Shown here: piece by piece, positions 1 through 44,463 of the stretch
Layout: the number at the start of each line of letters is the position of its first letter
How positions within the stretch are numbered: the first letter of the stretch is position 1
From: Chloroflexota bacterium
GTDB lineage: Bacteria; Chloroflexota; Anaerolineae; B4-G1; SLSP01
DNA length: 44,695 bases
Reading direction: 5' to 3'
Assembly (NCBI GenBank): GCA_019873725.1
Contig: JAIOAS010000007.1
Span: forward strand, 1-44,695
Position numbers and translations under genes: made by a program
The notes under the pieces: generated by a model
Told to the model about the DNA's origin: nothing
The model's database searches: none
Seen by the model: the letters and a program-made list of their open reading frames with translations, nothing else

Positions 1-1
1 A

Positions 2-262: not shown

Positions 263-282
263 CGCTGCCTCGCCATTACAAG

Positions 283-306
283 GCCCGGTTCATCGCCGGG
301 CTTTTT
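283..306 (+). terminator. Rho-independent terminator after the HTH gene
   Basis: The stem GCCCGG / CCGGGC closes a TTCATCG loop and is followed by TTTTT. It lies 20 bases after the HTH stop codon and 16 bases from the end of the convergent minus-strand gene. The same structure is at 44416-44440. Confidence 0.85.
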
Positions 307-321
307 GTTGCCCGCCGCCTG

Positions 322-14225: not shown

Positions 14226-15077
14226 CTAGCTCCACCACCTGTCGTACACCGACAGCACGTTGCGCAACGAGGTCAAAAGGTCGGGCGGGTAAGTGTACAC
14301 GCCGTCGTTCAAGATGGAAATGGCCTCAAACGCGCCGCGTCGCGCATAGAGCAGCGCCGCCTGCCGCGCTACTTCCATGCGTACATCGTATGCCCAGTAC
14401 CACGCCGATACTGCTGTCGTTGCCGCGTGCGCAGCTGCTGCTGTACCATTCTCGCCGCGCCGTACAGCTAGCGTGTTCGCCGTCGTGTTGACCGCCAAGA
14501 CGCGCATGAATTCGTCATCCACCACGATCAGGTTCCCCGGCGAAAAGCGCGGCGTCTCGCCCTCTGCGCCCGCCCCGTCCACGTCCATGACCGTCAGTGA
14601 TGTGGCTGAGGCGTTAACATCGGCAGCCAAAATATCAACCGCTGCCCACGCGCCGCTGTAGTCAGGGTGCATTCCCCAATATCCGGTCACGTTGCATTGC
14701 ATGACGAGATCGTCTGTGCAGGCTACGGTGTACCAAGATGCGCACTGATCTGCCAGACGTAAGCGATTGCAAGGCGCAGTACTGGGCGGCCACAGCGTTA
14801 CGTCGGCTGTGGGGCTTAAGGAAACCCCATTCACAGATACCGCCGTCAACTCTAGAAGGGGGGCCGGGAGCAGCAAAGTGCGATCCGCACTGCTAACGAA
14901 CCAGGGTTCGATCAAAATCACCTTCGTGGCTAACACTGGCTCGAAGGGAAACAGCAGACGATCTACGCGCAAAGAAACTTGGCGCACATAGTTGAGCAGC
15001 ACGCTATCGTTTGCAGTGCTTGCCATCTCGCTCTTGAGTGCGTTCCGCGCGTCATGCAGTGTCGCATAGCTTCTCAT
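14226..15077 (-). CDS. Head-tail connector protein
   Basis: A 283-residue protein. The N-terminal helices (LNYVRQVSLRVDRLLFPFEP) and C-terminal helices (VRMEVARQAALLYARRG) frame an inserted β domain (about residues 60-230). Helical ends of this kind are typical of gp6-like / adaptor proteins that bind the portal. It overlaps the preceding gene by ATGA (15074-15077). The fold is inferred from pattern and gene order. Confidence 0.55.
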   Translation of the reverse strand: MRSYATLHDARNALKSEMASTANDSVLLNYVRQVSLRVDRLLFPFEPVLATKVILIEPWFVSSADRTLLLPAPLLELTAVSVNGVSLSPTADVTLWPPSTAPCNRLRLADQCASWYTVACTDDLVMQCNVTGYWGMHPDYSGAWAAVDILAADVNASATSLTVMDVDGAGAEGETPRFSPGNLIVVDDEFMRVLAVNTTANTLAVRRGENGTAAAAHAATTAVSAWYWAYDVRMEVARQAALLYARRGAFEAISILNDGVYTYPPDLLTSLRNVLSVYDRWWS

Positions 15078-15580
15078 GCGAATCGCCTTCCCTTCACCGC
15101 CGGGTCAACGATGGAGTACCATCCGTCGATCAAGTTCGATTCCGCGTGCGCCAGCGCGTCGAGCAATATCCTGTCCGGGTCCGGCCAGCGTCCTGCGTGG
15201 AACGGCTGCTGGTGTGGCGCATAGACAAATGGCGCTGCGCGCGCATCATTCTCGGCAGAGATTGCGCCGCTTTTGGTCGTTAGATTGACCACAACTTTCC
15301 ACTTCGCCGCGATCCCCGGCGACTTGCGGCGGTAGGGGATGCCCCCACCAAAGCCGTTCGTCGCAAAGAACGCGCGCCGCTGGCGCTCCGTCTTCCAGGG
15401 GAACTGGCCGCGCGGGAAATGCGGCGGGGGCGGCGTATAGCGCAGCGCGTCCAGGTCGCGTTCTAAATCCCCCTTGACGGTTCGTTCGACAAACAGCCGC
15501 ACTGTGCGCGGCGCATCCTGCGCTGCGTCGCGCAGCGCCGCCAGGATATCCGCGTCAACTGCCAGACTTGCGCGGTACAT
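15074..15580 (-). CDS. Head-tail joining protein, HK97-gp10-like
   Basis: A 168-residue basic protein with an N-terminal helix pair, an RYTPPPP turn and a conserved-looking WKTERQRRAFFATNGFGGGIPYRR segment. I recall this 'WxTxKQRRaFFA' pattern from phage minor head-tail proteins. Its 5' end overlaps the nucleotidyltransferase gene by 26 bases, which shows how tightly the glycan cassette is spliced into the structural operon. Confidence 0.6.
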   Translation of the reverse strand: MYRASLAVDADILAALRDAAQDAPRTVRLFVERTVKGDLERDLDALRYTPPPPHFPRGQFPWKTERQRRAFFATNGFGGGIPYRRKSPGIAAKWKVVVNLTTKSGAISAENDARAAPFVYAPHQQPFHAGRWPDPDRILLDALAHAESNLIDGWYSIVDPAVKGRRFA

Positions 15581-16247
15581 TGCGCTGCCCCTTCTGCGTT
15601 CGGCGCGGCTCAGGCTCCTCAGGCAACTCTCCGGCGTCGTATTTTGCCTTCAATGCCTGGTAGCCATCCCAATCGTCGATGTCTCCAGTGCCGTCTTCGA
15701 TGTATGTGAAGTATGGGTCGCCAGTGTGACGCAGCTCAAAATGCTGGTTGTTCGGCATACCATAAAGGCTGCGATATAGCGACCATAGCCGTCCGGCTGT
15801 TGGATCGTCTGGGTGCGCCCCGGCATAACCGTATGGCACATACAGCGCATACATGTCTCCGGGGACAAAGCGGACAGCGAATATTTCAGATGCCGTGCCG
15901 TACAGATGCGGTGTGACGGCAACATCCTGGAAGATCATATCCAGGGCAGCGCCAGTGAAGCACACATCTCCCAGCAGCGCAGCCATTGGTCCATCCCAAA
16001 GGTCGCGCGTTTGATGGACGGTCTCCATGAGCCAGCGAGCGTATGTTGGCGCGAAGATTTGAGCCTTGTCTTGAACCGCCTCTTTGATCTCCGGGTGATT
16101 CGTCACGACGATAGGCGTGTGACCGCGCCGGACAACCTGACGAATCGTCCGCGCCAGCAATGGTTCACCGCCAAAGTCCGCCAGTTGTTTGGGAAGCTCT
16201 CCCGTCCAGCGCGTTTGCTGCCCCGCGCAGAGGATCAGTACTTTCAT
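15555..16247 (-). CDS. Nucleotidyltransferase-like protein (sugar-nucleotide type)
   Basis: A 230-residue protein from the ATG at 16247; a longer frame to 16403 overlaps the next gene without benefit. The start KVLILCAGQQTRW is the nucleotide-binding loop of the GT-A fold NTP-transferases (GlmU/RfbA/MobA group). LPKQL follows with the usual Lys, and LLGDVCF carries the metal-binding Asp. The family joins sugar-1-phosphates to NTPs to make activated sugars. It is shorter than RfbA, so the sugar cannot be named. It presumably feeds the glycosyltransferases upstream in the operon. Confidence 0.75.
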   Translation of the reverse strand: MKVLILCAGQQTRWTGELPKQLADFGGEPLLARTIRQVVRRGHTPIVVTNHPEIKEAVQDKAQIFAPTYARWLMETVHQTRDLWDGPMAALLGDVCFTGAALDMIFQDVAVTPHLYGTASEIFAVRFVPGDMYALYVPYGYAGAHPDDPTAGRLWSLYRSLYGMPNNQHFELRHTGDPYFTYIEDGTGDIDDWDGYQALKAKYDAGELPEEPEPRRTQKGQRNVPRKSGS

Positions 16248-16540
16248 TTTTGGTTCCCTTCTACGTACACCATCAGGCCTGTCCAGCTTGCCAGCATCAG
16301 CGCGGCGGCGCTGAGGGCCAGCACTGCGACAAGGACGGCAAGTGGCGTGTACCATAACAGCAGGCATGTCCCAGCCGTCCAAACCGACAGGCAAAAGATG
16401 CATGATGTTAAACCGCCCAGAGGAAGCCGTGCACGCAAGGTCTCGAAAACGCCGAATGGCCCGCGCTCATGGCTGATCATGAATGCCAAGCGCCAGGCAG
16501 CCAGGGCAATCACCAGGAAGTCGAAGCCTAAAATCGTCAC
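16244..16540 (-). CDS. DUF1360-like small membrane protein
   Basis: A 98-residue protein, GTG start. Hydrophobic segments lie at about residues 5-22, 45-65 and 66-92. The motif CIFCLSVWTA between the first two is the CxxC(x)SxW signature I associate with DUF1360 proteins, which occur in Bacillus and in phages. Its role is unknown. The four-base overlap with the nucleotidyltransferase and its place between sugar genes suggest a membrane-side function in the same glycan pathway. Confidence 0.6.
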   Translation of the reverse strand: MTILGFDFLVIALAAWRLAFMISHERGPFGVFETLRARLPLGGLTSCIFCLSVWTAGTCLLLWYTPLAVLVAVLALSAAALMLASWTGLMVYVEGNQK

Positions 16541-16554
16541 TCTTTTCTACTCTC

Positions 16555-17229
16555 TCATGACCAGGGCACAGACCGATCTGGCTCCCAGCGGTGTTGGACG
16601 AACCCTGCCCGCCTGTGAACGAAGATCATGTCCGACTGCCGCAAGCTACCATCTGCCCGCCTGTCCATGTCCACGATGTCGTAGATGTAGTACCCCCGAC
16701 CACACAGGAATTCTACGATTTCGTGCACCAGCGGTGTGCCACGCTGAAATTCGATATAGGACACTTCCGTTTGGATCACAGGCGTGTCTGCCAAGACTTG
16801 TACGGCTCCTTGCAATGCGGCTAACTCGCCGCCCTGAATGTCCAGCTTCAATAGGCGCGGCGCGGGCAACTCAAGCTCGCGCACAAGGCGGTTCAAGCTG
16901 GTAACGCTGATGCTCTCAGCGGTTCCCCACTCTGCACCCTCAAAGTTACCCAGAAGCGAACTCTGTGGACCGTGCGCATTGAAATGCACATGCTCCTGTG
17001 GTTGCAACCCCAAACCGACAGGCATGAAGCGCCAGCCCGCGCTTGTCGCCAGTGCTTCAAGCTCGGCGCGCACAGATAAGAGTGGGTCAAGTAGAAGCAC
17101 CGGGATGCCCGGAAAGAGCCGTGTTACGCTCTTAGCCCATTGCCCCACGTGAGCGCCGCCGTCAATGATGGAGGCCGGGTAAAAGCCATCTCGCCGCAAG
17201 CGACCGAGCGCGTCCATGTAGCTAGCCAT
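16555..17229 (-). CDS. FkbM-family methyltransferase
   Basis: A 224-residue SAM-dependent methyltransferase. The start at 17229 follows GGAG by 7 bases and overlaps the previous stop by 8. Motif I is IIDGGAHVGQWAKSV (about residue 22-36), the acidic post-loop is LLLDPLLSV, and the family signature LLKLDIQGGELAALQGA lies around 128-144. FkbM enzymes O-methylate sugars or small hydroxyls and often sit in glycan clusters. Here it is the second methyltransferase module of the cassette. Confidence 0.85.
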   Translation of the reverse strand: MASYMDALGRLRRDGFYPASIIDGGAHVGQWAKSVTRLFPGIPVLLLDPLLSVRAELEALATSAGWRFMPVGLGLQPQEHVHFNAHGPQSSLLGNFEGAEWGTAESISVTSLNRLVRELELPAPRLLKLDIQGGELAALQGAVQVLADTPVIQTEVSYIEFQRGTPLVHEIVEFLCGRGYYIYDIVDMDRRADGSLRQSDMIFVHRRAGFVQHRWEPDRSVPWS

Positions 17230-19795
17230 GTTCGCTCTCCAGATTTGGTAGCATTTCAAAGATCAACTGCCTGACACGTTCGTCAAAACTATGCTTCTCC
17301 AAGATATGCGCCTGTGCCGCCTTCGCAATCTTGCGCCGCGCATCCTCGCGCAGTGGATCAAGCCAGAACTCAATCAGGCCGGGGAGTTCTTCAATGTCAT
17401 CCCATCCGATGAAGTGGACGCCATCGATAAGTCCAAGACGCTCCTGCATCCCTTTGAAGCGGCGATGTAGGCACAGCGCGCCGCCCGCAACCAGGAGATT
17501 GAAAGTCCGATTGCTGCAAAAGCCGTCCAGTTCCGGCCACTCTTGGTCTGCAATAGCCAACTTTGCCGCGCGGTAGAGTTGCCCCTGGCGCTTGAAATCC
17601 TGGTAACACACGCCGTCGGGGGTATATTCTGCTGACCATATTCCATAGAGTCCGACGTTTACATTCCGCAGACCGCGCAACACTCTTCCCAGTTTCTCTC
17701 GATGCGCGTTGTTGCCGCTGCCCAAGAACACTACGTCATGGTGCGGCATAGCATCATCGGGATCGGCGGTCAGCATGTCAGGCTCATAGCCGATCTGCCA
17801 GTAGGCTGCCCTCAGTCCGTGCGCCACGTAATTACGCAGCACTTCTGCGTTGACAACTCCGGTCATGTCCATCACGCGCGCCAGCGACAGCGCGGATGGC
17901 GAGAGCATCATGTCTGGATATACATCGCCGATCCAGTTGACGAAGTATGCTGTTGGTACGACCTGCCGAAGGGCTTGAACGAACTCGGCGTCGATGCCCC
18001 CCATCGGACCATGCAGCTGGAAAAGAATCAGATGCGGAACGAAGGCCGCGATGGTGTCGAGAAGATGTTGGCGCATACCGGATACGCCACGTCGCTCGGC
18101 CTCGTGCAAGTAGTCGTAGACAAGCAAGCGCCCGATCCGAGCCAAAGCCTCATTCATGCCACGCATCTGGGTCTGCTGGTTAAGGTACGCATTGGGATCG
18201 GCCTGAATAGGAGCACGGATCGGCAAATGCATCACGCGGAGCTTGGGGGAAGGCGGCGCGAAAGGGAAAAGGGGCGCGTCGGCAACATGCACCCCGTGTG
18301 GACGCCACTTGAGGAACATATCCCCATCCGGGTGCCATGATATAGCTTTCTCTCCACTGCGCATGTTAATGCGGCGCAGGTTGTCCGAATATTGCTTATC
18401 GAAGATGCGCGCTTGCGGCGTCTTGGCAACCCTGAAGCCCATCTCGGCCAAACGGCAGCCCAGAGCGAAGTCGCCGCCATAGGTCAGCGCGCCGGGCAGT
18501 TTCCACCACTGTGCTCTGTCGCCCAACTCGCGCGGCACCATGCACACCTGCGGCATGATAACGTGTACGTTGGGGTCACGCGCCGTGTGGTAGGTTGACA
18601 CCCGCCAGTCGGTATTCGTTCTCTTCTCCTCGAACGCGATAGCGCCAATACCCGGTGTGTCTTCCAGGGCGGCAAAGGCTGCTGCGATGCTGCCTGGCTG
18701 AAACACAATATCGTCATTGGCAAGCACGACGTAACGCCCGCGTGCGGCATATGCGCCATCGTTGAACGCTAAAATCGCGCCATGCAGCCGGGTGTGCTGG
18801 ATCAGACGAATGTCCGACTGCGTAGCGATCCAAGCCTGTGTGCCGTCCGTGCTGCCGCCATCAACGAGCACAAACTCAACCTTGAGATCGGCCAGGGCTT
18901 CGCGCCGCGCCGAGGCAACCATCTCTTGCAATAGCGGCAGGCGATTGTATGTGCCGCTCACAACGCTTATATCAGGACGCGACTCAGCGTCGGTGTACTC
19001 CCATCCGCAGCGGCTGCCGCGCAGAACGTCTAACCCAGTGAGTTTGCCGACGGTCTCAGTTGAAAGTGCCGACGCGCCGCGCAATACGACGATCATGCCG
19101 TACACGCAGCGCATGTCGAAGAGCGTTTCGTCCAGTAAAGCCCGATCCGTCGGTAGGTTAGCCATGTCCATGACCACGATGTAGTCCAGTGCGGCATCCA
19201 GAATGAACGCTTGCTTATACCCCAGATCGCGCAGCGTATAGATGGACTGCAACGTGCGCGCACGGTATTCGTCCGACCACACGCCTGTCGCGGCGGCGCG
19301 ATTCGGCATGCCGCCATACTCGAAGGCAAGCACAGACGGGAGTAGCTCAGGTGGAAGGTTCGGTAAGGTTGCAATTACATCCGGCTCACTACCTTCAATG
19401 TCCAACTTCAAGCATGACAGGTGACGCACATCCTGCTGTTCCAGTAACTTGCACAGGGTTCGCACCTGTACCATCTGTTCGCCGTGTGTGCGCGCGAACC
19501 AATCCTGGCGCAGGCTCGCATAGTTGGCGTCCCGCCCCAGGTAAAGAGCGCCTTCGCCTTCCTGTGAGCCAAGCGCGACTTGAATCAGCTGGATGTTATG
19601 TTCCGCGCAAACAGCGCTTGCGCGGTCCATAGGTAACGGCTCGATCATCCATGCTGAGTATCCCCATGTGCGAAAGTACTGCGCATAGAAATTGTCTGTC
19701 CCGGCCCCAGCCTCTATGCACAAACCCGCGCACTTGGGGTCTACCAGCTTGAGCGCCTCTTGGACGATCACCTTCGTCGTCTGTTCGCAGTCCAT
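17222..19795 (-). CDS. Three-module FkbM methyltransferase - GT2 - CgeB-like glycosyltransferase fusion
   Basis: An 857-residue protein from the ATG at 19795; the frame is open to 20125 but that part shadows the upstream gene. Residues 1-230 are an FkbM methyltransferase (CIEAGAGTDNFYAQYF, then LSCLKLDIEGSEPDVI). Residues about 270-500 are a GT-A family 2 glycosyltransferase (DISVVSGTYNRLPLL, VLVDGGSTDGTQ, ANDDIVF as the acidic metal motif). Residues about 520-857 are a GT-B-like module ending with the Glyco_trans_1_2/CgeB pattern (FCSNRTFNLLVAGGALCL, HILEKHSFDERV). One chain could therefore add two sugars and methylate one. It lacks a signal or membrane segment, so it acts in the cytoplasm. 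Confidence 0.85.
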   Translation of the reverse strand: MDCEQTTKVIVQEALKLVDPKCAGLCIEAGAGTDNFYAQYFRTWGYSAWMIEPLPMDRASAVCAEHNIQLIQVALGSQEGEGALYLGRDANYASLRQDWFARTHGEQMVQVRTLCKLLEQQDVRHLSCLKLDIEGSEPDVIATLPNLPPELLPSVLAFEYGGMPNRAAATGVWSDEYRARTLQSIYTLRDLGYKQAFILDAALDYIVVMDMANLPTDRALLDETLFDMRCVYGMIVVLRGASALSTETVGKLTGLDVLRGSRCGWEYTDAESRPDISVVSGTYNRLPLLQEMVASARREALADLKVEFVLVDGGSTDGTQAWIATQSDIRLIQHTRLHGAILAFNDGAYAARGRYVVLANDDIVFQPGSIAAAFAALEDTPGIGAIAFEEKRTNTDWRVSTYHTARDPNVHVIMPQVCMVPRELGDRAQWWKLPGALTYGGDFALGCRLAEMGFRVAKTPQARIFDKQYSDNLRRINMRSGEKAISWHPDGDMFLKWRPHGVHVADAPLFPFAPPSPKLRVMHLPIRAPIQADPNAYLNQQTQMRGMNEALARIGRLLVYDYLHEAERRGVSGMRQHLLDTIAAFVPHLILFQLHGPMGGIDAEFVQALRQVVPTAYFVNWIGDVYPDMMLSPSALSLARVMDMTGVVNAEVLRNYVAHGLRAAYWQIGYEPDMLTADPDDAMPHHDVVFLGSGNNAHREKLGRVLRGLRNVNVGLYGIWSAEYTPDGVCYQDFKRQGQLYRAAKLAIADQEWPELDGFCSNRTFNLLVAGGALCLHRRFKGMQERLGLIDGVHFIGWDDIEELPGLIEFWLDPLREDARRKIAKAAQAHILEKHSFDERVRQLIFEMLPNLESEHG

Positions 19796-20136
19796 TTGTT
19801 TTTGGGTTTTTCCTTTTCCGTATGCGCTTGCATCCACGCTGCTTGGGCACGCGCCAGAATTTGGTCGCGCGGCAAGGCTATGCGCGGCATGTCTGGCATT
19901 TGGATTTCCGCCTGGGAGCCAATGACCTGGCGGCGCGCCAGCACCTTCTGTCCCAAGACGGCAGCGGCGCCCTCTTGATCCGATACAATCCGCCAATTTT
20001 TCTGGTCGGCTTCCACATCTTGCTGGTCCAGACGCACGAGCATTCCGCCGCCAATACGACCGTAGAAACGGCCACTTTTGCGCCCCACGTAGCGATGTGT
20101 TCCGCGTGCAATGTAGACAGCCCACACGTCAGCCAT
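19768..20136 (-). CDS. Small basic protein sharing a domain with the neighbouring glycosyltransferase
   Basis: A 122-residue protein with GGAG 11 bases before the ATG. Residues about 18-52 (SGRFY ... LDQQDVEA ... NWRI) match the last 35 residues of the glycosyltransferase encoded just upstream (SGRVY ... VDPRDVEA ... KWRRI). The rest is polar and basic, ending in RRRR. It overlaps the GT2 stop by 8 bases and the fusion gene start by 28. The shared β-module may bind a virion protein or the glycan acceptor. The function is unknown. Confidence 0.6.
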   Translation of the reverse strand: MADVWAVYIARGTHRYVGRKSGRFYGRIGGGMLVRLDQQDVEADQKNWRIVSDQEGAAAVLGQKVLARRQVIGSQAEIQMPDMPRIALPRDQILARAQAAWMQAHTEKEKPKNKWTANRRRR

Positions 20137-20968
20137 CGATACGTCTCCATTTGTCCGGCGACGCTTCCACGTCGCGGGGATCTACCCACATCGGACGATA
20201 GTTTCCGCCTCGGTAGACACGCCCGGACACGCGCCCAACCACACGCCCTACGCCCATCCAGAGCGCCTGGGCCAATACGTCGGTTTCCAAGCGTGTACCC
20301 GGCGGCACGACAGTCTTGTCAGACCTGCTAATACAACATCCTGGCATAGTAGCTCCTTTGTAACGCTCTATGATGGACCTACGAGTCCGTTCCGCCTCGG
20401 CGGTCAACGCAATGGCACCGCCACTGCGCTTGAAGATCGCGCGCGTGCTGCGTTGCCCATCGGCACTGTAGTGCAGCAGGTGTCGCCGCACATGCAATCC
20501 CAAGTGGCCGCCTACGTATCTGAGTTTCAGCCACAGGTCCGTGTCCTCAAAGTACGGCAAGCTCTCGTCGAAACCGCCTATCGCGCGCAGCCAGTCCGTG
20601 CGCACAAGCGCCGTGATAGTGTGGCCGCGATACTCCGGCAGGCAGTAACAGCAGTCAGAGGCCGTAACCGGGCCGCGCGCAGCGTACCAATCCGGGTACA
20701 CGTACATGTCCGGGACTGCGCGCGCGGCTTCCAGCAGCGTTGCTACCGCGTCCGGCTCAAGCCAGTCGTCAGCGTCTAGGAACAGCGTGAAAGGCGTCGT
20801 CACCTGCGCGAGACCTCTGTTCCGCGCCCATCCCGCGCCGCGTCCGGCGTCATCATGCAGCACGATTGGCGTGCTCGGCTCTGTCTGCGCTTGCACGCTT
20901 TGCACCGCACGAGCCGCTAAGTGCCGATGGTATGGCCCGACCGGGATAACTACCGACACGTCTGGCAT
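20129..20968 (-). CDS. Family 2 glycosyltransferase with C-terminal add-on domain
   Basis: A 279-residue protein with a strong ribosome site (GGAGG, 7 bases). The GT-A fold is clear: VSVVIPVGPYHRHL at the start, LFLDADDWLEPD as the metal-binding motif near residue 65-76, FDESLPYFEDTDLWLKL as the catalytic-loop ED. After residue 205 come a CCISR segment and a last 40 residues shared with the next gene. It is the first gene after the major capsid gene. Inverting or retaining chemistry and the sugar cannot be read from sequence. Confidence 0.85.
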   Translation of the reverse strand: MPDVSVVIPVGPYHRHLAARAVQSVQAQTEPSTPIVLHDDAGRGAGWARNRGLAQVTTPFTLFLDADDWLEPDAVATLLEAARAVPDMYVYPDWYAARGPVTASDCCYCLPEYRGHTITALVRTDWLRAIGGFDESLPYFEDTDLWLKLRYVGGHLGLHVRRHLLHYSADGQRSTRAIFKRSGGAIALTAEAERTRRSIIERYKGATMPGCCISRSDKTVVPPGTRLETDVLAQALWMGVGRVVGRVSGRVYRGGNYRPMWVDPRDVEASPDKWRRIDG

Positions 20969-20983
20969 GATTTTGCCTCCGCC

Positions 20984-21009
20984 GGGGCGGGGACGATCAT
21001 CCCCGCCCC
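20984..21009. terminator. Strong GC hairpin after the major capsid gene
   Basis: GGGGCGGGGA (20984-20993) pairs with TCCCCGCCCC (21000-21009) around a 6-base loop, 20 bases after the capsid stop on the minus strand. There is no T-run, so it probably acts as a partial terminator or an mRNA-stabilising structure. It would let capsid mRNA exceed the glycan cassette mRNA. Confidence 0.6.
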
Positions 21010-21028
21010 GCTCTACACTCCATTAGTG

Positions 21029-22546
21029 TCAGCGCGCAGCTTCCCAGGCCGATAGGTCGCTGTACGAGTCGCCGCCATTCACATAACCGCTCTCGCCCGG
21101 ATACGGGCTACGGATGCGTGCGTGCGTGGTGTAGCTGATATTGTCGATGCGTCCCGCCAGGAACGGCGTCTCCAAGATCAGCCTCATGCGCGCGGCGAGG
21201 TGGTATTCGCTGCACATCGGCACATGCGCGTTGTCGATCAGGTACATACCGTTGTTGATGACCGCCATGTCGTTCCCCTGGAACCCCGTCCATTCCTTGA
21301 TGTACGGGTTGTCCATCGGGAAGTATTGCAGGCGGAGCAGCCGCCATCCGTTCCATGACACCGGAACAACGAAGATGCTGGAGGTGAAGGTGTCGGGACC
21401 AGTAGGGGTACGCGCGATGCCGTCAGAGAAGTACACCGGGATCTGACGGTTATCCACCAGCAGGTACTGCCCGCTCATCATCGCCAGCTGCTCGCGGCGC
21501 TGCGTTTCAGCAGCCTGCATGTTCGCAGTGTTCTGACAACGCATGGTCGCGTAGTTGCAAGCGACCTGGTATGTCAGCATACGGAACAGGTCAGCGCGCA
21601 TGATGAGCGCCCGCTGATACCCCTGCATCCCCGTCTTCCACGCAAGGTCGTCATGAGCATACACCATATCCATGATGACCTCATCGATAGTACGGCCATC
21701 TCCGCCGCCCATCGTGTCGCCGATATCGGCACCGAAGTCTTCCACGATGCTATCGACGGCCTCGCAAGGCGTGTCCGAACCCTCGGAGATGTAGCCCTCT
21801 TTGATCAGGAGTTCCAGACCGTCGAACTCGCTAATCCAACCCCACTCGCGGTTTGCTCCCGTCACGGCGTGGTTGCCCTGGATAGCAACGCGCTCCAATG
21901 ACAGCCGGAATTGGTTGCCGAAGCGATAGAACTCGTACTGCAAAGGGCTGAGCGTGTCAGTCATGCGGAACATGATGTCAGGGACGAACGGGTGATTACT
22001 TGGACCCTCGTTCAACACCTGGCGAACAACATCCGCATAGTCATCAACCTGCCCGATCTCTGGAATCGCCTGTAGACCCGTGCGCCCCTTGAAGTTGCCG
22101 AACGGCACCGTGATATTGCACCGCTTCAAGTAGCCCGGCATCGGCCCCGGCTCACACCATCCGTCGGCATTTTCATATGCGTCCGGCGCAGTCTGTCCGG
22201 TGACGATTGCCAGGCGTTCGTTGACGCGGTTGCTCTTCTCAGCGGTCAGCAGGTCCAGAAACGTGCGAGGCTGCGGCAGCGTTGAGAACATCTGGGGCCG
22301 CACGCCGGGATCAGCAAAGATACCGTGATGGCCGGAGCCATCCTGAAGCGGCCCGTGCAGTTGGCTTGGCGTCGGGGTAGTGCTCACCGGATCGTTTTTG
22401 GTGATGATGTACCCCAGACTCTTCAGTCGTTCCAGCAGCGTGATCGCATCGTCCGTCGCGCGCGCGTCGCTTCCCGGCGTGGTGTCCGCGTCGGGCATAC
22501 CGCGCTTCGCTTTCAAGATACGAACTTTCTCCTGCATGTTGCGCAT
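21029..22546 (-). CDS. Major capsid protein
   Basis: A 505-residue protein with AAGGAG 8 bases before the ATG. It follows the protease-like and scaffold-like genes. The order and the α/β character with a late PVSWNGWRLLRLQYFPMDNPYIKEW segment and a C-terminal β strand (FLAGRIDNISYTTHARI) fit an HK97-fold subunit. The first 55 residues are charged and helical, as in cleaved N-terminal scaffolding arms. It is longer than the 300-400 residues of simple HK97 subunits. It is the best acceptor candidate for the downstream glycan cassette. Confidence 0.75.
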   Translation of the reverse strand: MRNMQEKVRILKAKRGMPDADTTPGSDARATDDAITLLERLKSLGYIITKNDPVSTTPTPSQLHGPLQDGSGHHGIFADPGVRPQMFSTLPQPRTFLDLLTAEKSNRVNERLAIVTGQTAPDAYENADGWCEPGPMPGYLKRCNITVPFGNFKGRTGLQAIPEIGQVDDYADVVRQVLNEGPSNHPFVPDIMFRMTDTLSPLQYEFYRFGNQFRLSLERVAIQGNHAVTGANREWGWISEFDGLELLIKEGYISEGSDTPCEAVDSIVEDFGADIGDTMGGGDGRTIDEVIMDMVYAHDDLAWKTGMQGYQRALIMRADLFRMLTYQVACNYATMRCQNTANMQAAETQRREQLAMMSGQYLLVDNRQIPVYFSDGIARTPTGPDTFTSSIFVVPVSWNGWRLLRLQYFPMDNPYIKEWTGFQGNDMAVINNGMYLIDNAHVPMCSEYHLAARMRLILETPFLAGRIDNISYTTHARIRSPYPGESGYVNGGDSYSDLSAWEAAR

Positions 22547-23926: not shown

Positions 23927-25927
23927 TCAGAACCTCCCAGTCGCACGCTCACCCAGAGCTAGGGTAAGCGTACAGAGGCAACGGAACCCCTTGCAGGTCA
24001 GTGCGTCCGACCCCGGCGTCAAGCGACGCTTGCGCCAGTCACGCAAGCGGTGTACTTGACCATTGAGGTTCAGACACCCGACCGTTTTTCCCTGGCTGCG
24101 GCAATGCTCCTCGGTCGGGCCAAGATTCCAGCGGTGAGGAGCATTCCAGGCAGCTGAGGCCTGCCCCAGATTGAAAAAGCCGCGCAGAGACTTGTTGGCC
24201 CACAGGGACGCCCGATGCGTGATTGATTCCGGTCTGATCTTGCCCGTGTACACCTCGTCCGCAAATTGCGCGATATACTTGCTCTGTTCGGCCAGATATT
24301 CCTGGACGGCTGCCAAGTCCCGCTCGTCAAAATCTAACCTGCTAACGCCCCCGGCCTCAAGACCGTCTCGGAAGGCGTCCAGTCCAAGTCGGTGCAGGTG
24401 TGCACGCATGACAATGTTGAAGCGCCGCTTCTGTATCTCGTTGCTGATACCGCCGCGTACCAGGTCCGCGACATTGGCAATGAACTGCGCCCGCGTGGTC
24501 GCCCACGCCTTGCTGCGCAGCACAGATTGACCGCGCGGTTCCGACTGTGCATACGCGCCGCCCTCTGGGGCGCGCTCCGCTGGCGTGGATACTGCCTGTG
24601 ACGCCTGCGCCCCGCCGCCAACGAGGGGAGTATCGTCCGACGCGACCTGCTCGGTAGAGCGCGGATCAGCATCGTCCAAGCGCATGATGCGCCCGCGCTC
24701 GTCCGTCAAAATGTCCTTGAGCACATCGTCTACGGTAGCCAAGTACCGCCTGATCTCCTGAGTGCTCATGTGCCCTGCCGCCATTTGGATCGCTTGCATA
24801 TTCGAGAGCCGCGTCGCGGCCTGCTGCGCGTCCTGTTCGTCGTCGCGGAATTTGAATTTGAACTCGAAGTCCTCTGGCAGCAGATCGTTTATCGCGCGCG
24901 TAAGCATGGCCCGAATGTCGGCCATGCCGTTGCCGCGTCCTTTCGCAGCCATGACCTCGCTCTGTGTCCCTGTCCCCATCTGCCCGCCCGTCAGCGGGTA
25001 TACATCTTGGGGGTCAACGCCGAGCGCAAGCGCGATCACACGCGCGTCCAACTCGGTGTATTTCTGGAAGTCGAATTTGTCCGGCGGCTGCGAGTACGGG
25101 ATCATCTTCACATCCGCGTCCTGCGACCCTTCGGCGGGGTGCAGGAAGACGGTCCGACCATACATGTTCGGCGTGTCAAAGCGCATCCGCTCACGCAGCT
25201 TGCGCGCCTCGGCCATAACGTCCTGTTCAAGGATGTTCTTCAGCACCGCGATGCCCGGCGGCGGTTCGTCGTCCAGGACAACGTCAACATAGCGCCCCAT
25301 CCGCAGTTCCCGCGTGCTCACCGCAATCGCGCGTGAGAGCGCGCAAAGGCCAAGCGCGGGGTGCTCTTCGTCGCTATCAGGCGCATCGACAAAGCGCACT
25401 ACACGGCTGTGGTGCAACAGATGTAACTCACCGGCTGCGTTGAAGTAGAGCACGGGGTAGGTCGGATCGCCCGTCGGGAAACAGCGTAATGGGTCGAGCA
25501 AGGCAATAGCAAGTGGACCGCCGATACACGGAGCTAGGGGATGTCCATAACCGACAACTTCCCAAAATGCGCCACGATCATGGCGGCAAAAATCGCGCAC
25601 GGTTGCCTTCACGAGTTGGTCCCATCCGCGACCAAACCAGGCGTTGCGCAACACGGACTGGTAGTGCGTTGCGTCCTTCCCAAGTGGCGCGCGTATCTCC
25701 CAGGGCGTCGCTGCGATGCGCCGCGCTAAACCTGCAACCGCGCCCTGCCAGAGCGAGTTGTACTCATAGCGGTCATACCGCCTGAGAACCCGCTCGCGTT
25801 CCTGGCTCCCCCACGACGGCAGGATTGGACCGCGCCAGTATTCACCGAAGATCATCGTGACGCCAGTGCCAGCGCGGGCATCAGGCACTTTCTGGACAGA
25901 TTGCGCGGTAGCGGCTGATACGGTCAT
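23927..25927 (-). CDS. Portal protein fused to a Mu-F-like minor head domain
   Basis: A 666-residue protein coupled to the terminase gene by ATGA (25924-25927). Residues 1-420 are portal-like: a RYDRYEYNSLWQGAVAGLARRIAATPW start, a LHHSRVVRFVDAPD segment, then LGVDPQDVYPL and a long helix. After a Pro/Ala/Gly/Gln linker (about 420-465) the rest is a minor head protein of the Mu gpF / SPP1 gp7 type: THRASLWANKSLRGFFNLG, WNLGPTEEHCRSQG, and Cys pairs near the C-terminus (TCKGFRCLCTL). These are usually two genes. The portal is the DNA gate of the capsid. Confidence 0.8.
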   Translation of the reverse strand: MTVSAATAQSVQKVPDARAGTGVTMIFGEYWRGPILPSWGSQERERVLRRYDRYEYNSLWQGAVAGLARRIAATPWEIRAPLGKDATHYQSVLRNAWFGRGWDQLVKATVRDFCRHDRGAFWEVVGYGHPLAPCIGGPLAIALLDPLRCFPTGDPTYPVLYFNAAGELHLLHHSRVVRFVDAPDSDEEHPALGLCALSRAIAVSTRELRMGRYVDVVLDDEPPPGIAVLKNILEQDVMAEARKLRERMRFDTPNMYGRTVFLHPAEGSQDADVKMIPYSQPPDKFDFQKYTELDARVIALALGVDPQDVYPLTGGQMGTGTQSEVMAAKGRGNGMADIRAMLTRAINDLLPEDFEFKFKFRDDEQDAQQAATRLSNMQAIQMAAGHMSTQEIRRYLATVDDVLKDILTDERGRIMRLDDADPRSTEQVASDDTPLVGGGAQASQAVSTPAERAPEGGAYAQSEPRGQSVLRSKAWATTRAQFIANVADLVRGGISNEIQKRRFNIVMRAHLHRLGLDAFRDGLEAGGVSRLDFDERDLAAVQEYLAEQSKYIAQFADEVYTGKIRPESITHRASLWANKSLRGFFNLGQASAAWNAPHRWNLGPTEEHCRSQGKTVGCLNLNGQVHRLRDWRKRRLTPGSDALTCKGFRCLCTLTLALGERATGRF

Positions 25928-27345
25928 GACGCTCTCCGGGGTCGCAAACCAGCGGTCAAGTAGCGCAGGGCATCCGGCGCATGGTCGTCAACTTTTGCTG
26001 GCACCATCTCTCCGAACCTCGCGTGGGCTTGCTTATCATAATGGTACGCTGACAACTCGCGGATGGTATGTGTACAGCGTGGATGGATTTTCAATAGGCG
26101 CACGCCGTTGCCATCGCAGACGAGGCGGCGCAGGTTTTTGATTGTCTCGGCAACTTGTGCATTCGTGGTCAGCGTACCAATCCCGGCGGCGTGTAGCGCC
26201 CCGCCGAACATAGCCATGCCAGGTCCCAAGAACGCACGCAAAGGACGCGGGTATGGCAGGGCGAGTACATTGGCGATAGAAGCGGCATAGTCTGGCACTC
26301 CGGCGCGGACATACTCGTCAAACACGTTGACCCCGCCTTGCGGCGTGAACTGCGCCACGAGAATAACGCGCGGATGATAATTCTCATGACCCGGCCCGTC
26401 GCCGTAAGCATAGCCGTCATCACAAGCCCAGTAAACGGGGCCAAGTTCGGGCTGATAATCGGCTTCGGGCGTGACATTCGCCGCAAGGTCGAAATTGTCG
26501 TAGACGAGGAAGGCGTAGGCCTGAGCGAGGGCCTCGGCGTCCGTCGCCGGATATTGCTCATGCAGTACATCCAGCGCCCCTTGTCCCCCGCCGGAGCGTG
26601 ACGCGATCTCACTGCGTTGCGCCTCGTACCAGGCCGCATCACGGCCCGGATGCGCCGACCAGGGCAGAAAGATGGGCGTCCATCCATTAAGACCTTGCTT
26701 GGCCGCGCGGTAGATGGCTTTGAACGGAGTGTTGGGACGCGACTTGTCGGGCCGTGAGACCAAAAGCATCCGACCACCGTTATCGATAGTCGGCTTGACG
26801 GCGGCAAGCAACCTGTCTTGGTTGTCCACGAGGTCGAACTCGTCGCCGATCACGAGGGTCGCCGTATACGAGTCCCCCGCTGTCGTGGGGAAGGCAATTG
26901 CGCGTGATCCGTTGCTGAGCGCCCACTCATGCGCACTGTTCACCGTGACCAGGCGCGCCTGCATCCAGGTCGGCAAATGCTGATAGATGCCCTTCAGTCG
27001 AAAGTCCAGCAAGTCGATAGCCTCGTCATCCCGGCGGCTGAACAGCAAGATCGTTGCGGCAGGGTAGAACAGCATCAGCCACAAAGCGAAGGATAACGCC
27101 AGCCACGTCACACCCAACTGCCGCGCTTTGAGGATACACACAAGACGACGCTCATGCATGATTTTGAGCGTCCGGGCCTGAGCAGGCCACAAATGGAACG
27201 GTATCCACACGCCAGACAACGCATCATACACACGGCAGTAGTGGTCTACAAAGTACAGCGGCGAATAACGACATATGAGCCACTCACGCCGTTGTTCCTC
27301 GTGCACCCCACGCCCTACCGTGTTACTGCTCGCCGCCATGACCAC
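25924..27345 (-). CDS. terL: Terminase large subunit
   Basis: A 473-residue packaging motor. The ATPase half has an adenine-region Gln-like start, a Walker A-like LKARQLGVTWLAL (about 72-84) and Walker B IGDEFD (about 166-171). The nuclease half has an acidic WACDDGYAYG strand (about 305) and the C-terminal VDDHAPDALRY. I kept the GTG at 27345 because AGGAAA lies 6 bases upstream; an ATG at 27339 is possible. It overlaps the small subunit gene by 23 bases. Confidence 0.92.
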   Translation of the reverse strand: MVMAASSNTVGRGVHEEQRREWLICRYSPLYFVDHYCRVYDALSGVWIPFHLWPAQARTLKIMHERRLVCILKARQLGVTWLALSFALWLMLFYPAATILLFSRRDDEAIDLLDFRLKGIYQHLPTWMQARLVTVNSAHEWALSNGSRAIAFPTTAGDSYTATLVIGDEFDLVDNQDRLLAAVKPTIDNGGRMLLVSRPDKSRPNTPFKAIYRAAKQGLNGWTPIFLPWSAHPGRDAAWYEAQRSEIASRSGGGQGALDVLHEQYPATDAEALAQAYAFLVYDNFDLAANVTPEADYQPELGPVYWACDDGYAYGDGPGHENYHPRVILVAQFTPQGGVNVFDEYVRAGVPDYAASIANVLALPYPRPLRAFLGPGMAMFGGALHAAGIGTLTTNAQVAETIKNLRRLVCDGNGVRLLKIHPRCTHTIRELSAYHYDKQAHARFGEMVPAKVDDHAPDALRYLTAGLRPRRAS

Positions 27346-27799
27346 TTAACTTTTCCTGTTCAAACCGCACTGCATCGGCTACTGCTCGCGCAAAGTCATC
27401 GGCAGTAAACGGCTGCCACATACGTTCACCAGCCGGATCAGTTGGTGCGACCTTCGTTGGCGCGTCAAGACCGAGCAGCTTCGCGCGGCGTTCCATGATG
27501 CGCAGCACGCGGTCTATCGCGCCCTGGTTGCCCTGCCGCGCTTGCGGCCACAGCGCCAGCAGCAGCGTGTCCAGACGTTCCAGTTCCAGGTTACGCACTT
27601 CATCAGCAGGCGCTTGCAACGTCTTGCGTAACGCGGTTTGTACCGCCTTGAATGCACCGGAGACGCTGGCATAACCAAGCTGTTCCGCGATCATGGCAAA
27701 CGACGCCCCGGCCTTTCGTAACTCGACGGCCTGACGCTGTTTATTTACCGCTTCGATACGACGCGGGCTGGTCAGTGATTCACTCGCATGCTTCGCCAT
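27323..27799 (-). CDS. terS: Terminase small subunit
   Basis: A 158-residue DNA-recognition subunit. The N-terminal HTH (RRIEAVNKQRQAVELRKAG, then FAMIAEQLGYASVSGAFKAV) is followed by an oligomerisation helix region (LELERLDTLLLALWPQARQG) and an acidic C-terminal tail that would contact the large subunit. I placed the start at the ATG at 27799; a longer frame starts at 27844, only about 12 bases after the predicted transcription start. It is the first gene of the late operon. Confidence 0.85.
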   Translation of the reverse strand: MAKHASESLTSPRRIEAVNKQRQAVELRKAGASFAMIAEQLGYASVSGAFKAVQTALRKTLQAPADEVRNLELERLDTLLLALWPQARQGNQGAIDRVLRIMERRAKLLGLDAPTKVAPTDPAGERMWQPFTADDFARAVADAVRFEQEKLSGHGGEQ

Positions 27800-27862
27800 T
27801 CTGCGCGACAACCCCAAAAACACAACCCCTAACACTGCATCCATACATGCAGTGCTATTCTA

Positions 27863-27891
27863 AGAATAAAATATTTCAGAACAAATGTCAA
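27863..27891 (-). promoter_or_regulatory. Sigma-70-type late promoter before the terminase genes
   Basis: On the minus strand TTGACA (27886-27891) and TATTCT (27863-27868) are separated by exactly 17 bases. Transcription would begin near 27856. It is the only consensus promoter I see before the whole packaging-head-tail-lysis block. Confidence 0.8.
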
Positions 27892-27927
27892 GCTGTCGCC
27901 GATTAGTAGAAACCAATCGGCAACAGC
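27892..27927. promoter_or_regulatory. 13-bp inverted repeat next to the late promoter
   Basis: GCTGTCGCCGATT (27892-27904) and AATCGGCAACAGC (27915-27927) pair over 13 positions with one G-T wobble and a 10-base loop. It directly abuts the -35 box. It could be an operator, or the end hairpin of the PP-loop gene transcript (that gene stops at 27946). There is no long T-run. Confidence 0.65.
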
Positions 27928-27945
27928 TAATAGAAACTTTAGCGA

Positions 27946-28833
27946 TTACACATCACACAGCCCTGACATGCACGACAGTCCTTCGGCGTCGGCATCGAAC
28001 AGGGGCAGTTGATCGGGGATGTCCCCCCGCGCTATCGCCTGAAGCGTCGCCAGACTGCGCTCTGCCTTCCACGTGTGACCGATCTCCTGCTCTATCTCGA
28101 TGTAGGGATCAAGCAGGCCAGGATGGGCGCGCTCGTGGCCGATCACCTCGCGGTCGCCGGAAAAGAAACACACCGCGCAGTTGGCCCGTCCCGCACGGTT
28201 GTAGACCGGGTTAAGCGGAATGCCCCATTTCCGCAAGTAGCTGAGCACGTCCTCGGTAGACCAGTCCACGACAGGATACCAAACCGGAACACCCAGATCG
28301 TAATTGAACTCGAATGCGGGCGTATCCGCGCGCGCGGCGCTCTCCTGGCGGCGGATACCGACAACCATCAGGCAGCGCCGCCGCAGTACCGGGTCGGTCG
28401 CATCGCGCACATACTTGTCGAGCACCTGCTTTTTCAGCGCCCGCGTGCAGTAGCGGCTCACCGGCGACGGCCAGCCCGCCGTGTCGGGGCGGCGCTGCGC
28501 CCGCAGCCGGATTTCGTCCAGCAGAGTGATCGCCCCACGCGCGCCGATAGGCTCATCCCAGGACAGTTCGACGTTTTCCAGGATGCGCCCCTGCCCGTTC
28601 TCGCCAATCGCCCGCCGCGCCAGCCGTCGGACCGGGAAGATGACCCGGTTGAACAGGCGCAGGTACTCGTAGGTTTCCGGCACTTCGGCTCCGGTATCGG
28701 CAAAGATGGCCGTCACCTGGGCGGGGTGGAACAGCCGCAGGCAGCGCACGAGGCAGGCGGTCGAGTCCTTGCCGCCGCTGAAGGAAACGAAAACCCGCGC
28801 GATCTGGCGCGGATCGAAGGGCAGTTCGCTCAT
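27946..28833 (-). CDS. PAPS-reductase-family PP-loop ATPase
   Basis: A 295-residue protein. FVSFSGGKDSTACLV (about residues 15-29) is the PP-loop that binds ATP. GIRRQESAARA and WYPVVDWSTEDVLSYL follow as in the PAPS reductase / DndC group. Cysteines at SRYCTRALKK and NCAVCFF could hold a metal or Fe-S cluster, and the C-terminus has CMSGLC. In phages this family may reduce sulfate donors or take part in nucleic-acid sulfur modification. Its neighbours (a DNA methyltransferase and a wHTH-like protein) favour a DNA-modification role, but this is inference. Confidence 0.8.
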   Translation of the reverse strand: MSELPFDPRQIARVFVSFSGGKDSTACLVRCLRLFHPAQVTAIFADTGAEVPETYEYLRLFNRVIFPVRRLARRAIGENGQGRILENVELSWDEPIGARGAITLLDEIRLRAQRRPDTAGWPSPVSRYCTRALKKQVLDKYVRDATDPVLRRRCLMVVGIRRQESAARADTPAFEFNYDLGVPVWYPVVDWSTEDVLSYLRKWGIPLNPVYNRAGRANCAVCFFSGDREVIGHERAHPGLLDPYIEIEQEIGHTWKAERSLATLQAIARGDIPDQLPLFDADAEGLSCMSGLCDV

Positions 28834-28851
28834 ATCGAGTCCTATCTATCG

Positions 28852-29106
28852 CTATTGCGCCCGCAAGGAGAGCACCTTCGCTAGGCCGTTAGGGCCGAGA
28901 CAGTAGTAGCGGTCAAACTCATCCTCACTGCACACAAGGTAGTAATGAGCGACCAGGTCATTCACAACACTCATGACTTCCGGCAGCCGACTCAATTCGT
29001 CACTCACAGTGAACCAGGCACTCGCCTTGTCACGACTGTTGATCCAGATGTTATAGGCATATTGTAGCAGATCGCGGGCAACCGGACCCAAGACATAAGA
29101 CGCCAT
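28852..29106 (-). CDS. Small winged-helix-like protein
   Basis: An 84-residue protein with AAAGGA 9 bases before the ATG. The pattern is helix (GPVARDLLQYAYNIWINS), helix (FTVSDELSRLPEVMSVVNDLVAHYYLV), then a β-like CSEDEFDRYYCLGPNGLAKVL. This looks like a compact winged-helix fold, such as those in archaeal-type regulators, but there is no clear family match. It lies between the PP-loop gene and the methyltransferase. Confidence 0.5.
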   Translation of the reverse strand: MASYVLGPVARDLLQYAYNIWINSRDKASAWFTVSDELSRLPEVMSVVNDLVAHYYLVCSEDEFDRYYCLGPNGLAKVLSLRAQ

Positions 29107-29238
29107 TCTGATTATCCTTTCCTCATCTTCACCGAAAACCGAACACGAGAACCACCAGAACCACCGGGAGACCCTTCCTGTTGACCTCCTTTCTCAGGCG
29201 GGGGCAGCCCGCGCCGCCCCCGCTTCGCCACACGCTGT

Positions 29239-30576
29239 TCATTTCACCGCGACCGCGACGACCTCTTGCGTCCGGTCCAGATCCACGACCGCCTCGGCAG
29301 CTTCCGCCTCGGAGAACGTTGCGCACACGGAACGGCCCGCTTCCGCGAGCGTGAACCCCGATGGCGCGAGGCCCAGGGCGAGCGGCGCGAACAGCGGCCC
29401 CATCGCCTGGGCAATCCGTCCCCGCGCTAGGCACAAATAGGCCGGGTTCGGCTCGATCAACACCGCCTTCAGGCCCAGTTCGTGCGCCACCGCCCCTGTC
29501 GTCCCGCTACCGCCAAAAGCGTCCAGGATGACGGGTCGCGCGACCGGCAGGCCCACCCAATGAGCCAGCAGGTCCAGCCGCATTGCCCGGACCACCTCAC
29601 ACTGCCGCGCGTAGTCCGCCACCGGCTCGCCCTTCCAACGCGGGAAGTCGGGCAGATTCGGTGTGCCATAGCAGCGGCAGGTGGGCCGCCAGCCCGCCGT
29701 GCCCAATATCTCCCAGCGTGGCCCTTGCCCTCGGCTGTCCTCGTGGACCTCTCCCGTCTTGTGTGTTTCAGCCGGGCGCTTGTCGAGCACCCGCGCCCAG
29801 GGCGCGCCGCAATCTGGGCACACGCCGCGCTCACTTGTGCCCGCCTTCAGGCAGCGGCGCGGCAGTTCCTCCGGAAAGGCCGCGAAGTGCGCGCCCCGGT
29901 ACGGCTGGGTCGGGATGGTCCAGACAGTGCGCGGGTTCCGCCCATCCGGAAGCATGTTGTCGACTATCCGCTCGCCGTGCGGGATCGCGTAGCGGTCGTA
30001 AAAGTAGTGCGGCGACCTGGTGAGCAGGAAGACGTACTCGTGATCGCGCGAAGGTCTGTCCGCGACACTCTCTGGCAAGGAGTTGGGCTTGTGCCAGATG
30101 TTCTCCGTGCGCAAATACCAGCCGTCCGCCTGCAACGCGAACGCAATCAGCCAAGGAACACCCACCAGGTCCTTGTCCTTCCGCCCACTGATGCGCCGAC
30201 GGCGTGGCATGGCGAGCTGCCCGCGTGACTTCTGTCCCGACTGCCCGCCCCACTTGGAGTCCTGAGCGTAGCTATCCCCCAGGTTGAGCCACCAGGTCCC
30301 GTCCGAGCGCAACACGCGCCGGTGCTCCCGCCCCACCAGGACCATATGACCGACGTAGGCTTCGACCGTTTCCTCGTTGCCGAGGCAGCAGACCATCGCC
30401 GGGACGTGGATCGGCGGCAGGCCCGGCAGCGGCGCATAGTCCACCGCCGGCCAGAAGGTCGGCGACAGGTTGTACTCCCGCAGCCCCCAATATGGCGGCG
30501 ATTCGACCGCGCAGTGGACCGTCCGGTCCGCCAGCGGGACGTGCAGCGCGTTACCCTGGATCAGCATCCTCGCCAT
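29239..30576 (-). CDS. DNA methyltransferase, N4-cytosine / N6-adenine type
   Basis: A 445-residue enzyme. SPPYWG near residue 27 is the catalytic motif IV of amino-methyltransferases, and DAFGGSGTTGAVA (about residue 345) is the SAM-binding motif I, so the order is the β class. A zinc-ribbon-like insert CPDCGAPW plus CRCYG sits between them. The PWLIAFALQADGWYLRTENIWHKPN segment is typical of this group. No restriction enzyme gene is adjacent, so it probably protects phage DNA from host restriction or acts in regulation. Confidence 0.88.
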   Translation of the reverse strand: MARMLIQGNALHVPLADRTVHCAVESPPYWGLREYNLSPTFWPAVDYAPLPGLPPIHVPAMVCCLGNEETVEAYVGHMVLVGREHRRVLRSDGTWWLNLGDSYAQDSKWGGQSGQKSRGQLAMPRRRRISGRKDKDLVGVPWLIAFALQADGWYLRTENIWHKPNSLPESVADRPSRDHEYVFLLTRSPHYFYDRYAIPHGERIVDNMLPDGRNPRTVWTIPTQPYRGAHFAAFPEELPRRCLKAGTSERGVCPDCGAPWARVLDKRPAETHKTGEVHEDSRGQGPRWEILGTAGWRPTCRCYGTPNLPDFPRWKGEPVADYARQCEVVRAMRLDLLAHWVGLPVARPVILDAFGGSGTTGAVAHELGLKAVLIEPNPAYLCLARGRIAQAMGPLFAPLALGLAPSGFTLAEAGRSVCATFSEAEAAEAVVDLDRTQEVVAVAVK

Positions 30577-44396: not shown

Positions 44397-44463
44397 CGCC
44401 GCCTCGCCATTACAAAGCCCGGTTCATCGCCGGGCTTTTTGTTGCCTGCCGCCCGCTACGGCT
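44135..44463. repeat. Right copy of the contig-end duplication
   Basis: It aligns with 1-329 without gaps; the first 111 bases are identical. The HTH gene here is complete, and downstream are a promoter and a small RNA instead of the glycoside-hydrolase-like gene. Confidence 0.95.
44416..44440 (+). terminator. Intrinsic terminator after the HTH gene
   Basis: AGCCCGG / CCGGGCT stem with TTCATCG loop and TTTTT. Identical stem to the one at 283-306. Confidence 0.85.

What the first reader, a model, noticed from the sequence alone, without database searches (positions are those of the whole stretch)
15555..20968. Glycan cassette spliced into the head-tail operon
Seen: two glycosyltransferase genes (three GT modules in total), two FkbM methyltransferase modules, an NTP-transferase-like protein, a DUF1360-like membrane protein and an unknown basic protein, all tightly overlapping and placed between the capsid gene and the connector genes. 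Established: some actinobacteriophages glycosylate capsid or tail proteins. Here the set seems able to make, transfer and methylate a short sugar chain. Inference: it decorates virions, possibly the capsid encoded next door, or changes host surface glycans.
Basis: partly seen in the sequence, partly recalled or inferred. Interest (0 to 1): 0.75.

Follow-up and report, generated by a model that had tools for sequence, protein, structure and literature searches.

The report
Sugar-building gene island beside phage capsid
A virus found in the genome bin of an uncultured Chloroflexota bacterium carries a block of sugar-attaching genes next to its shell-protein gene, and its relatives keep such a block in the same place with different sugar enzymes, which suggests that these viruses coat their own particles with variable sugars; no chemistry was tested.

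Summary
At 15555-20968 (minus strand), between the capsid-position gene and the connectors, lie a GT2 glycosyltransferase, a small basic protein, a fused FkbM methyltransferase-GT2-GT-B protein, a second FkbM methyltransferase, a DUF1360 membrane protein and a nucleotidyltransferase-like protein, packed as one translational unit. It is not a one-off insertion. Of 15 phage loci with a homologous capsid-position protein and readable downstream sequence, 12 have glycosyltransferases there by profile or BLAST, two have sugar-nucleotide/methyl enzymes plus GT-like ORFs, and one has neither. In the larger groups the GT nearest the capsid gene ends in the same ~70-residue Cys-Cys beta tail; a search with that tail alone returned four further contigs, all next to the capsid gene. 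The "basic protein" is a duplicate of that tail. The other enzymes are exchanged: heptose isomerase and kinase, sugar-nucleotide dehydratases, C- and O-methyltransferases, GT17, probably a sulfotransferase. Host class is Anaerolineae; the lineage is absent from 50,697 phage records. Best explanation: a capsid-linked virion-glycosylation island with interchangeable sugars. The target (capsid, other virion protein or host glycan) is unproven, and the capsid assignment rests on gene order alone. Kind: new variant of known virion glycosylation.

The parts
21029..22546 (-). Major capsid protein by position (505 aa), anchor gene of the island
   Evidence: Order TerL (25924-27345), portal (23927-25927), protease-like and scaffold-like ORFs, then this gene. 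Homologs hold the same place in 14 other loci; profile-profile match between subgroups 99.8%, E 9e-29. No PHROG, Pfam or PDB match and the structure model failed.
20969..21028 (-). G+C-rich hairpin between the capsid-position stop codon and the first island gene
   Evidence: -35.2 kcal/mol, z -4.5. The 75 bases after the stop fold at z <= -2 in 11 of 14 loci. Not listed by the terminator scan; the sequence shows no T-run after it.
20129..20968 (-). GT2 glycosyltransferase (279 aa) with C-terminal Cys-Cys beta tail (about residues 208-279)
   Evidence: PF00535 8.7e-11; DADD and ED invariant and tail Cys211-Cys212 invariant in 7 aligned GTs; AF2 pLDDT 71.6 with a GT-A core, Foldseek best PDB 6p61 3e-11; viral match Che8 gp108 9e-9.
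19768..20136 (-). Small basic protein (122 aa); its N-terminal ~50 residues duplicate the GT tail domain
   Evidence: Local score 75 against 26 +/- 4.5 for shuffles, none of 500 as high. A tail-like 77-aa gene stands alone right after a GT in L061, HMM E 1e-4.
17222..19795 (-). Fusion protein (857 aa): FkbM methyltransferase, GT2, GT-B (PF13524)
   Evidence: relative of the GT2-GT-B part in L037 (39%, E 2e-94) at the same place after its capsid-position gene.
16555..17229 (-). Second FkbM-type sugar O-methyltransferase (about 224 aa)
   Evidence: PF05050 8.6e-11; TIGR01444 2.6e-14, above its cut-off.
16244..16540 (-). DUF1360 small membrane protein (98 aa), last gene before the connectors in most relatives; perhaps a head-operon gene rather than a glycan gene
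   Evidence: three TM-like segments; homologs close the island in L019, L020, L021, L037, L040, L041, L049, L057-L059, L071; also in Gordonia phage Sixama without a GT nearby.
15555..16247 (-). MobA-like nucleotidyltransferase (230 aa), presumed sugar-1-phosphate activating enzyme
   Evidence: PF12804 1.8e-8, phrog_33187 1.7e-9. Homologs in nine Streptomyces phages, in the two read lying between a GT and a methyltransferase; in Lizz these are PF13524 and FkbM.
14226..15580 (-). Next structural genes (168 and 283 aa, probable connector/neck proteins) that bound the island downstream
   Evidence: Position and overlap; the 168-aa protein has a homolog directly after DUF1360 in L037.

Best explanation
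A virion-glycosylation island tied to the capsid gene. Shown: in a phage lineage of Anaerolineae (Chloroflexota) the block between the capsid-position gene and the neck genes carries soluble glycosyltransferases, usually with sugar methyltransferases and in several members sugar-nucleotide enzymes; in the larger groups the GT nearest the capsid gene has a Cys-Cys beta tail. Inferred: this GT puts the first sugar on a virion protein, most likely the capsid protein made just upstream; the tail, doubled in this phage as a separate small protein, helps it dock on the head or its precursor; the other GT modules extend the chain, the FkbM enzymes methylate it, and the NTase (or, in relatives, heptose isomerase/kinase or dehydratases) supplies activated sugars that the host may lack. 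A hairpin after the capsid gene would keep island expression below that of the capsid protein. Because enzymes are exchanged while the place is kept, related phages should carry different virion sugar coats.
For: Position: of 15 loci with a capsid-position homolog and at least 1.5 kb downstream, 12 have GTs by Pfam or BLAST, 2 have dehydratases/methyltransferases plus GT-like ORFs, 1 has none. A reverse test with the tail only returned 4 contigs with upstream sequence, all next to a capsid-position homolog. A fresh locus met the prediction, tail HMM 6.9e-19. Enzymes. Soluble GTs and no flippase. Che8 parallel: and PMC12363180. No thymidylate-synthase family hit on the contig, which is against DNA glycosylation. 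The GmhA profile finds only sub-threshold hits in the host genome.
Against: No glycan or acceptor was observed. Capsid identity rests on gene order; no profile, PDB or fold support. The loci were gathered through capsid or tail homology, so they are one lineage and not independent events; L020/L021 and L040/L041/L049 are close to each other. L050 has no GT in 7.5 kb after its capsid-position gene. The docking role of the tail is a guess from linkage. DUF1360 also occurs without a GT nearby.
Confidence: 0.6

Rival explanations
1. The island glycosylates another virion part, such as a tail fibre or head fibre, to tune receptor binding, and its place by the capsid gene only reflects late co-expression.
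For: Streptomyces phages keep a GT-NTase-methyltransferase trio after the tail genes. Mycobacteriophages are reported to glycosylate capsid and tail-tube proteins. L020 has a LamG protein beside the island.
Against: The lock is to the head operon, not the tail genes, in all members read.
Confidence: 0.2
2. The enzymes change host surface glycans during infection or lysogeny, to block superinfection or alter the host coat.
For: Phage GTs often do this; the GT2 part of the fusion weakly matches a GtrB-like PHROG. Island contents resemble polysaccharide loci, with Polysacc_synt_2, CmcI and NDP-sugar C-methyltransferase.
Against: No flippase, no polytopic GT, and the GTs have no TM-like segments. 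Placed in the head operon. No tyrosine integrase on the contig.
Confidence: 0.12
3. The GTs decorate phage DNA bases against restriction.
For: Phage GTs can modify DNA (Pyle et al. 2024, cited in PMC12619734); the window has a DNA methyltransferase and a PAPS-reductase-like gene.
Against: No thymidylate-synthase/hydroxymethylase homolog on the contig. The genes lie among head genes, not with replication. FkbM, GT17, heptose and C-methyl enzymes have no DNA role that I know of.
Confidence: 0.04
4. The island is a variable cargo slot: a permissive gap after the capsid gene that collects genes without a shared function.
For: L050 carries glycoside-hydrolase-like genes there instead; L015 has an HNH-like ORF and L051 an amidase-like ORF there, both by eye.
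Against: Conserved GT with the same tail in most groups, conserved DUF1360 boundary, and a strong bias to sugar chemistry.
Confidence: 0.04

Closest known systems
Virion glycosylation by mycobacteriophages Che8, Corndog and Myrna (Freeman et al. 2023, cited in PMC12363180 and PMC11256854)
   Same: Phage-encoded GT cluster (Che8 gp108-110); the GT2 here matches Che8 gp108 by fold (9e-9) and weakly by sequence (26%).
   Different: The Che8 cluster lies at the far right end of the genome, not by the capsid gene. The Cys-Cys tail, the FkbM fusion and the NTase were not looked for in Che8. Glycan not shown here.
GT-NTase-FkbM trio of Streptomyces phages (Yara, Lizz and relatives)
   Same: Homologous NTase (25-29% identity), a GT and a methyltransferase in adjacent genes after structural genes; in Lizz the GT is PF13524 and the methyltransferase FkbM.
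   Different: Sits after the tail genes; only three genes, without a GT2 plus Cys-Cys tail, a second FkbM or the fusion; no virion analysis of these phages was looked up.
GtrABC-type O-antigen seroconversion cassettes of temperate phages
   Same: GT2 fold; weak PHROG match of the fusion's GT2 part.
   Different: No flippase, no membrane GT, head-operon position.
GDP-heptose pathway (GmhA, HddA) of bacterial surface glycans
   Same: L020 encodes homologs: kinase 5e-28, isomerase 3e-18; L021 carries matching ORFs at the same place; L038 encodes a kinase in its island.
   Different: Not in the window itself; no dedicated phosphatase or guanylyltransferase identified in those loci; scores are below NCBIfam cut-offs.

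Membership tests
Phage virion glycosylation (Che8/Corndog type) | Phage genome encodes glycosyltransferases | tested here: met
   Three GT modules.
Phage virion glycosylation (Che8/Corndog type) | Glycan covalently bound to purified virion proteins | not testable with these tools
   Needs virions and mass spectrometry.
Phage virion glycosylation (Che8/Corndog type) | GT homologous to those required for capsid glycosylation | tested here: inconclusive
   Fold match to Che8 gp108 9e-9 and BLASTP 26% E 4e-8 for a single comparison; GT-A folds match broadly, and the GT named as essential is gp110, which was not compared.
Streptomyces-phage GT-NTase-FkbM trio | Homologous NTase near a PF13524 GT and an FkbM methyltransferase | tested here: met
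   here the GT is a domain of a larger protein and DUF1360 lies between.
Streptomyces-phage GT-NTase-FkbM trio | Located after the tail genes | tested here: not met
   Here it lies between capsid-position and connector genes.
GtrABC seroconversion cassette | GtrA flippase and membrane-embedded GTs | tested here: not met
   No TM-like segment in the GTs; only DUF1360 has several and it does not match GtrA.
DNA base glycosylation | Pyrimidine hydroxymethylase of the thymidylate-synthase family | tested here: not met
   No PF00303 hit on the contig or in the MAG.
HK97-fold major capsid protein (anchor gene) | Sequence or fold match to known capsid proteins | tested here: inconclusive
   No match; model pLDDT 35.8; assigned by order after terminase, portal and protease-like genes.

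The most novel reading that the evidence does not exclude
A capsid-locked glycosylation locus that works like a capsule locus: a conserved GT with a new Cys-Cys docking tail starts a glycan on the capsid, while exchangeable enzymes in between give each phage its own virion sugar type, including heptose, C-methyl and possibly sulfated sugars not, to my knowledge, reported on phage particles.
Probability: 0.35. Interest if true: 0.82.

Novelty: new variant of a known kind. Interest (0 to 1): 0.62.

Why it matters
Virion glycosylation is reported for a few mycobacteriophages, and its natural purpose is unclear, since phages do not normally meet antibodies. An uncultured lineage that keeps a glycan locus beside its capsid gene, with a dedicated GT tail and exchanged sugar enzymes, points to selection on virion sugars in nature, for example for stability, sticking to biofilm or evading defences. 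The fixed position and the tail give a simple handle to find such loci and to test what the sugars do.

Tried and rejected
Megablast and tblastn of the region and of the capsid-position protein against 50,697 phage records: no relatives. Single-protein scans with the capsid-position protein and the fusion in IMG/VR and GTDB contigs found nothing; alignments and a terminase query were needed. AF2 of the capsid-position protein failed, pLDDT 35.8, so no fold search was run on it. PDB and PHROG searches with capsid-position proteins: nothing. The idea that the window makes GDP-heptose was dropped: no GmhA or HddA in the window, and GmhA only sub-threshold in the host. DUF1360 as a glycan gene was weakened by Sixama. 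Direct terminal repeats: not found, so the contig is not shown to be a complete genome. The tail as a free-standing protein in phage records: no match. The paper searches found no description of this locus. Freeman et al. 2023 was not held and is known only through papers citing it.

Full report
What is there. The window is contig C7 of a 5.27 Mb metagenome-assembled genome. Nearly all genes run on the minus strand: replication genes, terminase, portal, protease- and scaffold-like ORFs, the capsid-position gene (21029-22546), the island (15555-20968), connectors, tape measure and tail genes. Base composition by codon position is that of real genes and like the neighbours. No thymidylate-synthase or tyrosine-integrase homolog lies on the contig.

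Host. Relatives of the capsid-position protein in named genomes are a Chloroflexi and an Anaerolineae MAG, and these are in the same class as the window's genome. Binning can be wrong, but the relatives support Anaerolineae. Three tblastn searches found no capsid-position relative among 50,697 phage records.

The island is conserved in place. A terminase relative in IMG/VR (L015/L019) has the same layout: capsid-position gene 27.7% identical, then GT2, second GT-like ORF, methyltransferase, DUF1360, connectors. Capsid profiles then gave L020, L021, L037, L038, L040, L041, L042 and L043 with L039, L049-L052 and L071. L039 and L043 overlap by exactly 127 bases within the capsid-position gene. 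Counting loci with at least 1.5 kb after that gene: 15 including the window. Twelve have GTs by Pfam or BLAST. L038 and L043 have Polysacc_synt_2 dehydratases (1.6e-63, 2.5e-75) and other sugar enzymes, with GT-like ORFs that have no Pfam hit. L050 has none in 7.5 kb, but a glycoside-hydrolase gene. In some loci one or more genes, such as a head-tail adaptor (phrog_442), lie between the capsid-position gene and the GT. Profile-profile comparison joins the two main capsid subgroups, 99.8%, E 9e-29.

The tail. The GT nearest the capsid gene ends in a ~70-residue tail with an invariant Cys-Cys and a small beta unit. It is absent from L038 and L043 and was not seen in the short L042 ORF; L051 is cut before it. 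A scan of IMG/VR with the tail alone brought L057-L060; all four carry it on a GT2-GT2 protein directly after a capsid-position homolog, and three of three with sequence have DUF1360 next. L061 has a GT4-GT2-GT2 protein followed by a stand-alone 77-aa tail-like gene (HMM 1e-4) and smaller paralogs. In the window the basic protein 19768-20136 is a second copy of the tail. The tail HMM built without it does not recover it, so this duplication rests on the pairwise score.

Exchanged contents. L020 and L021: GHMP kinase (HddA 5e-28 in L020) and phosphoheptose isomerase (GmhA 3e-18 in L020), with PDB matches to both. L038: dehydratase, GHMP kinase, and a GmhA-like gene upstream of the portal. L043: dehydratase, CmcI/rhamnosyl O-methyltransferase 3e-56, NDP-sugar C-methyltransferase. 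L037: GT17 1.4e-30 and a methyltransferase. L041 and L049: methyltransferase and phosphodiesterase. L071: a sulfotransferase-like ORF, named by eye only.

Structure. The GT2 model (pLDDT 71.6) has a GT-A core; best PDB match is a Leptospira GT (3e-11), and viral matches include Che8 gp108 (9e-9) (that Q855A2 is gp108 is inferred from its length of 391 aa). Che8 has a three-gene GT cluster gp108-110 and is reported to glycosylate its capsid, gp110 being named as essential (PMC12363180). Sequence similarity to gp108 is 26% and GT-A folds match widely, so this is a parallel, not membership. The capsid model failed.

Regulation. A strong hairpin follows the capsid-position stop (z -4.5); the same place folds at z <= -2 in 11 of 14 loci with different sequences. 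I read it as a step-down or RNA-end element; this is inference.

Mechanism and limits. Virion glycosylation is favoured because of the head-operon lock, soluble GTs, missing flippase and missing DNA-base enzyme. The acceptor, the sugar and the docking role of the tail are inferred. The loci form one lineage, so the tally shows conservation and not repeated origin. No background rate of GTs beside capsid genes in other phages was measured. The capsid assignment rests on gene order. DUF1360 also occurs in a head operon without a GT nearby and a relative of it belongs to phrog_781, function unknown, so it may be a boundary gene only.

Noticed in passing
window 1-329 and 44135-44463: A 329-base direct repeat, 92% identical with the first 111 bases identical, near both contig ends; the right copy lies in an ORF with an excisionase-like helix-turn-helix domain.
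   Followed up: partly
window 14226-15077: The connector-position protein has a segment (residues 141-224) matching domains of phage tail and tail-fibre proteins (phrog_1101, 1.4e-10).
   Followed up: no
window 27323-30576: Beside the terminase: a small protein matching an RNase E PHROG (1e-31), a PAPS-reductase-like gene and a DNA methyltransferase; a possible DNA-modification set.
   Followed up: no
L061 4228-4461, 5062-5259, 6597-6764: Small tail-like genes stand alone in a GT-bearing IMG/VR contig (HMM E 1e-4 to 2e-3); neighbouring ORFs look transposase-like by eye.
   Followed up: partly
L050 11435-16009: Exception in the lineage: glycoside-hydrolase catalytic core (5e-34) and large ORFs in place of GTs.
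   Followed up: partly
L071 12986-13549 and 17300-18169: Sulfotransferase-like ORF inside the island and a subtilisin-like protease ORF downstream, both by eye only.
   Followed up: no
L020 16329-17390: Laminin-G-like protein (5e-10) between DUF1360 and the connectors, a possible head or neck decoration.
   Followed up: no
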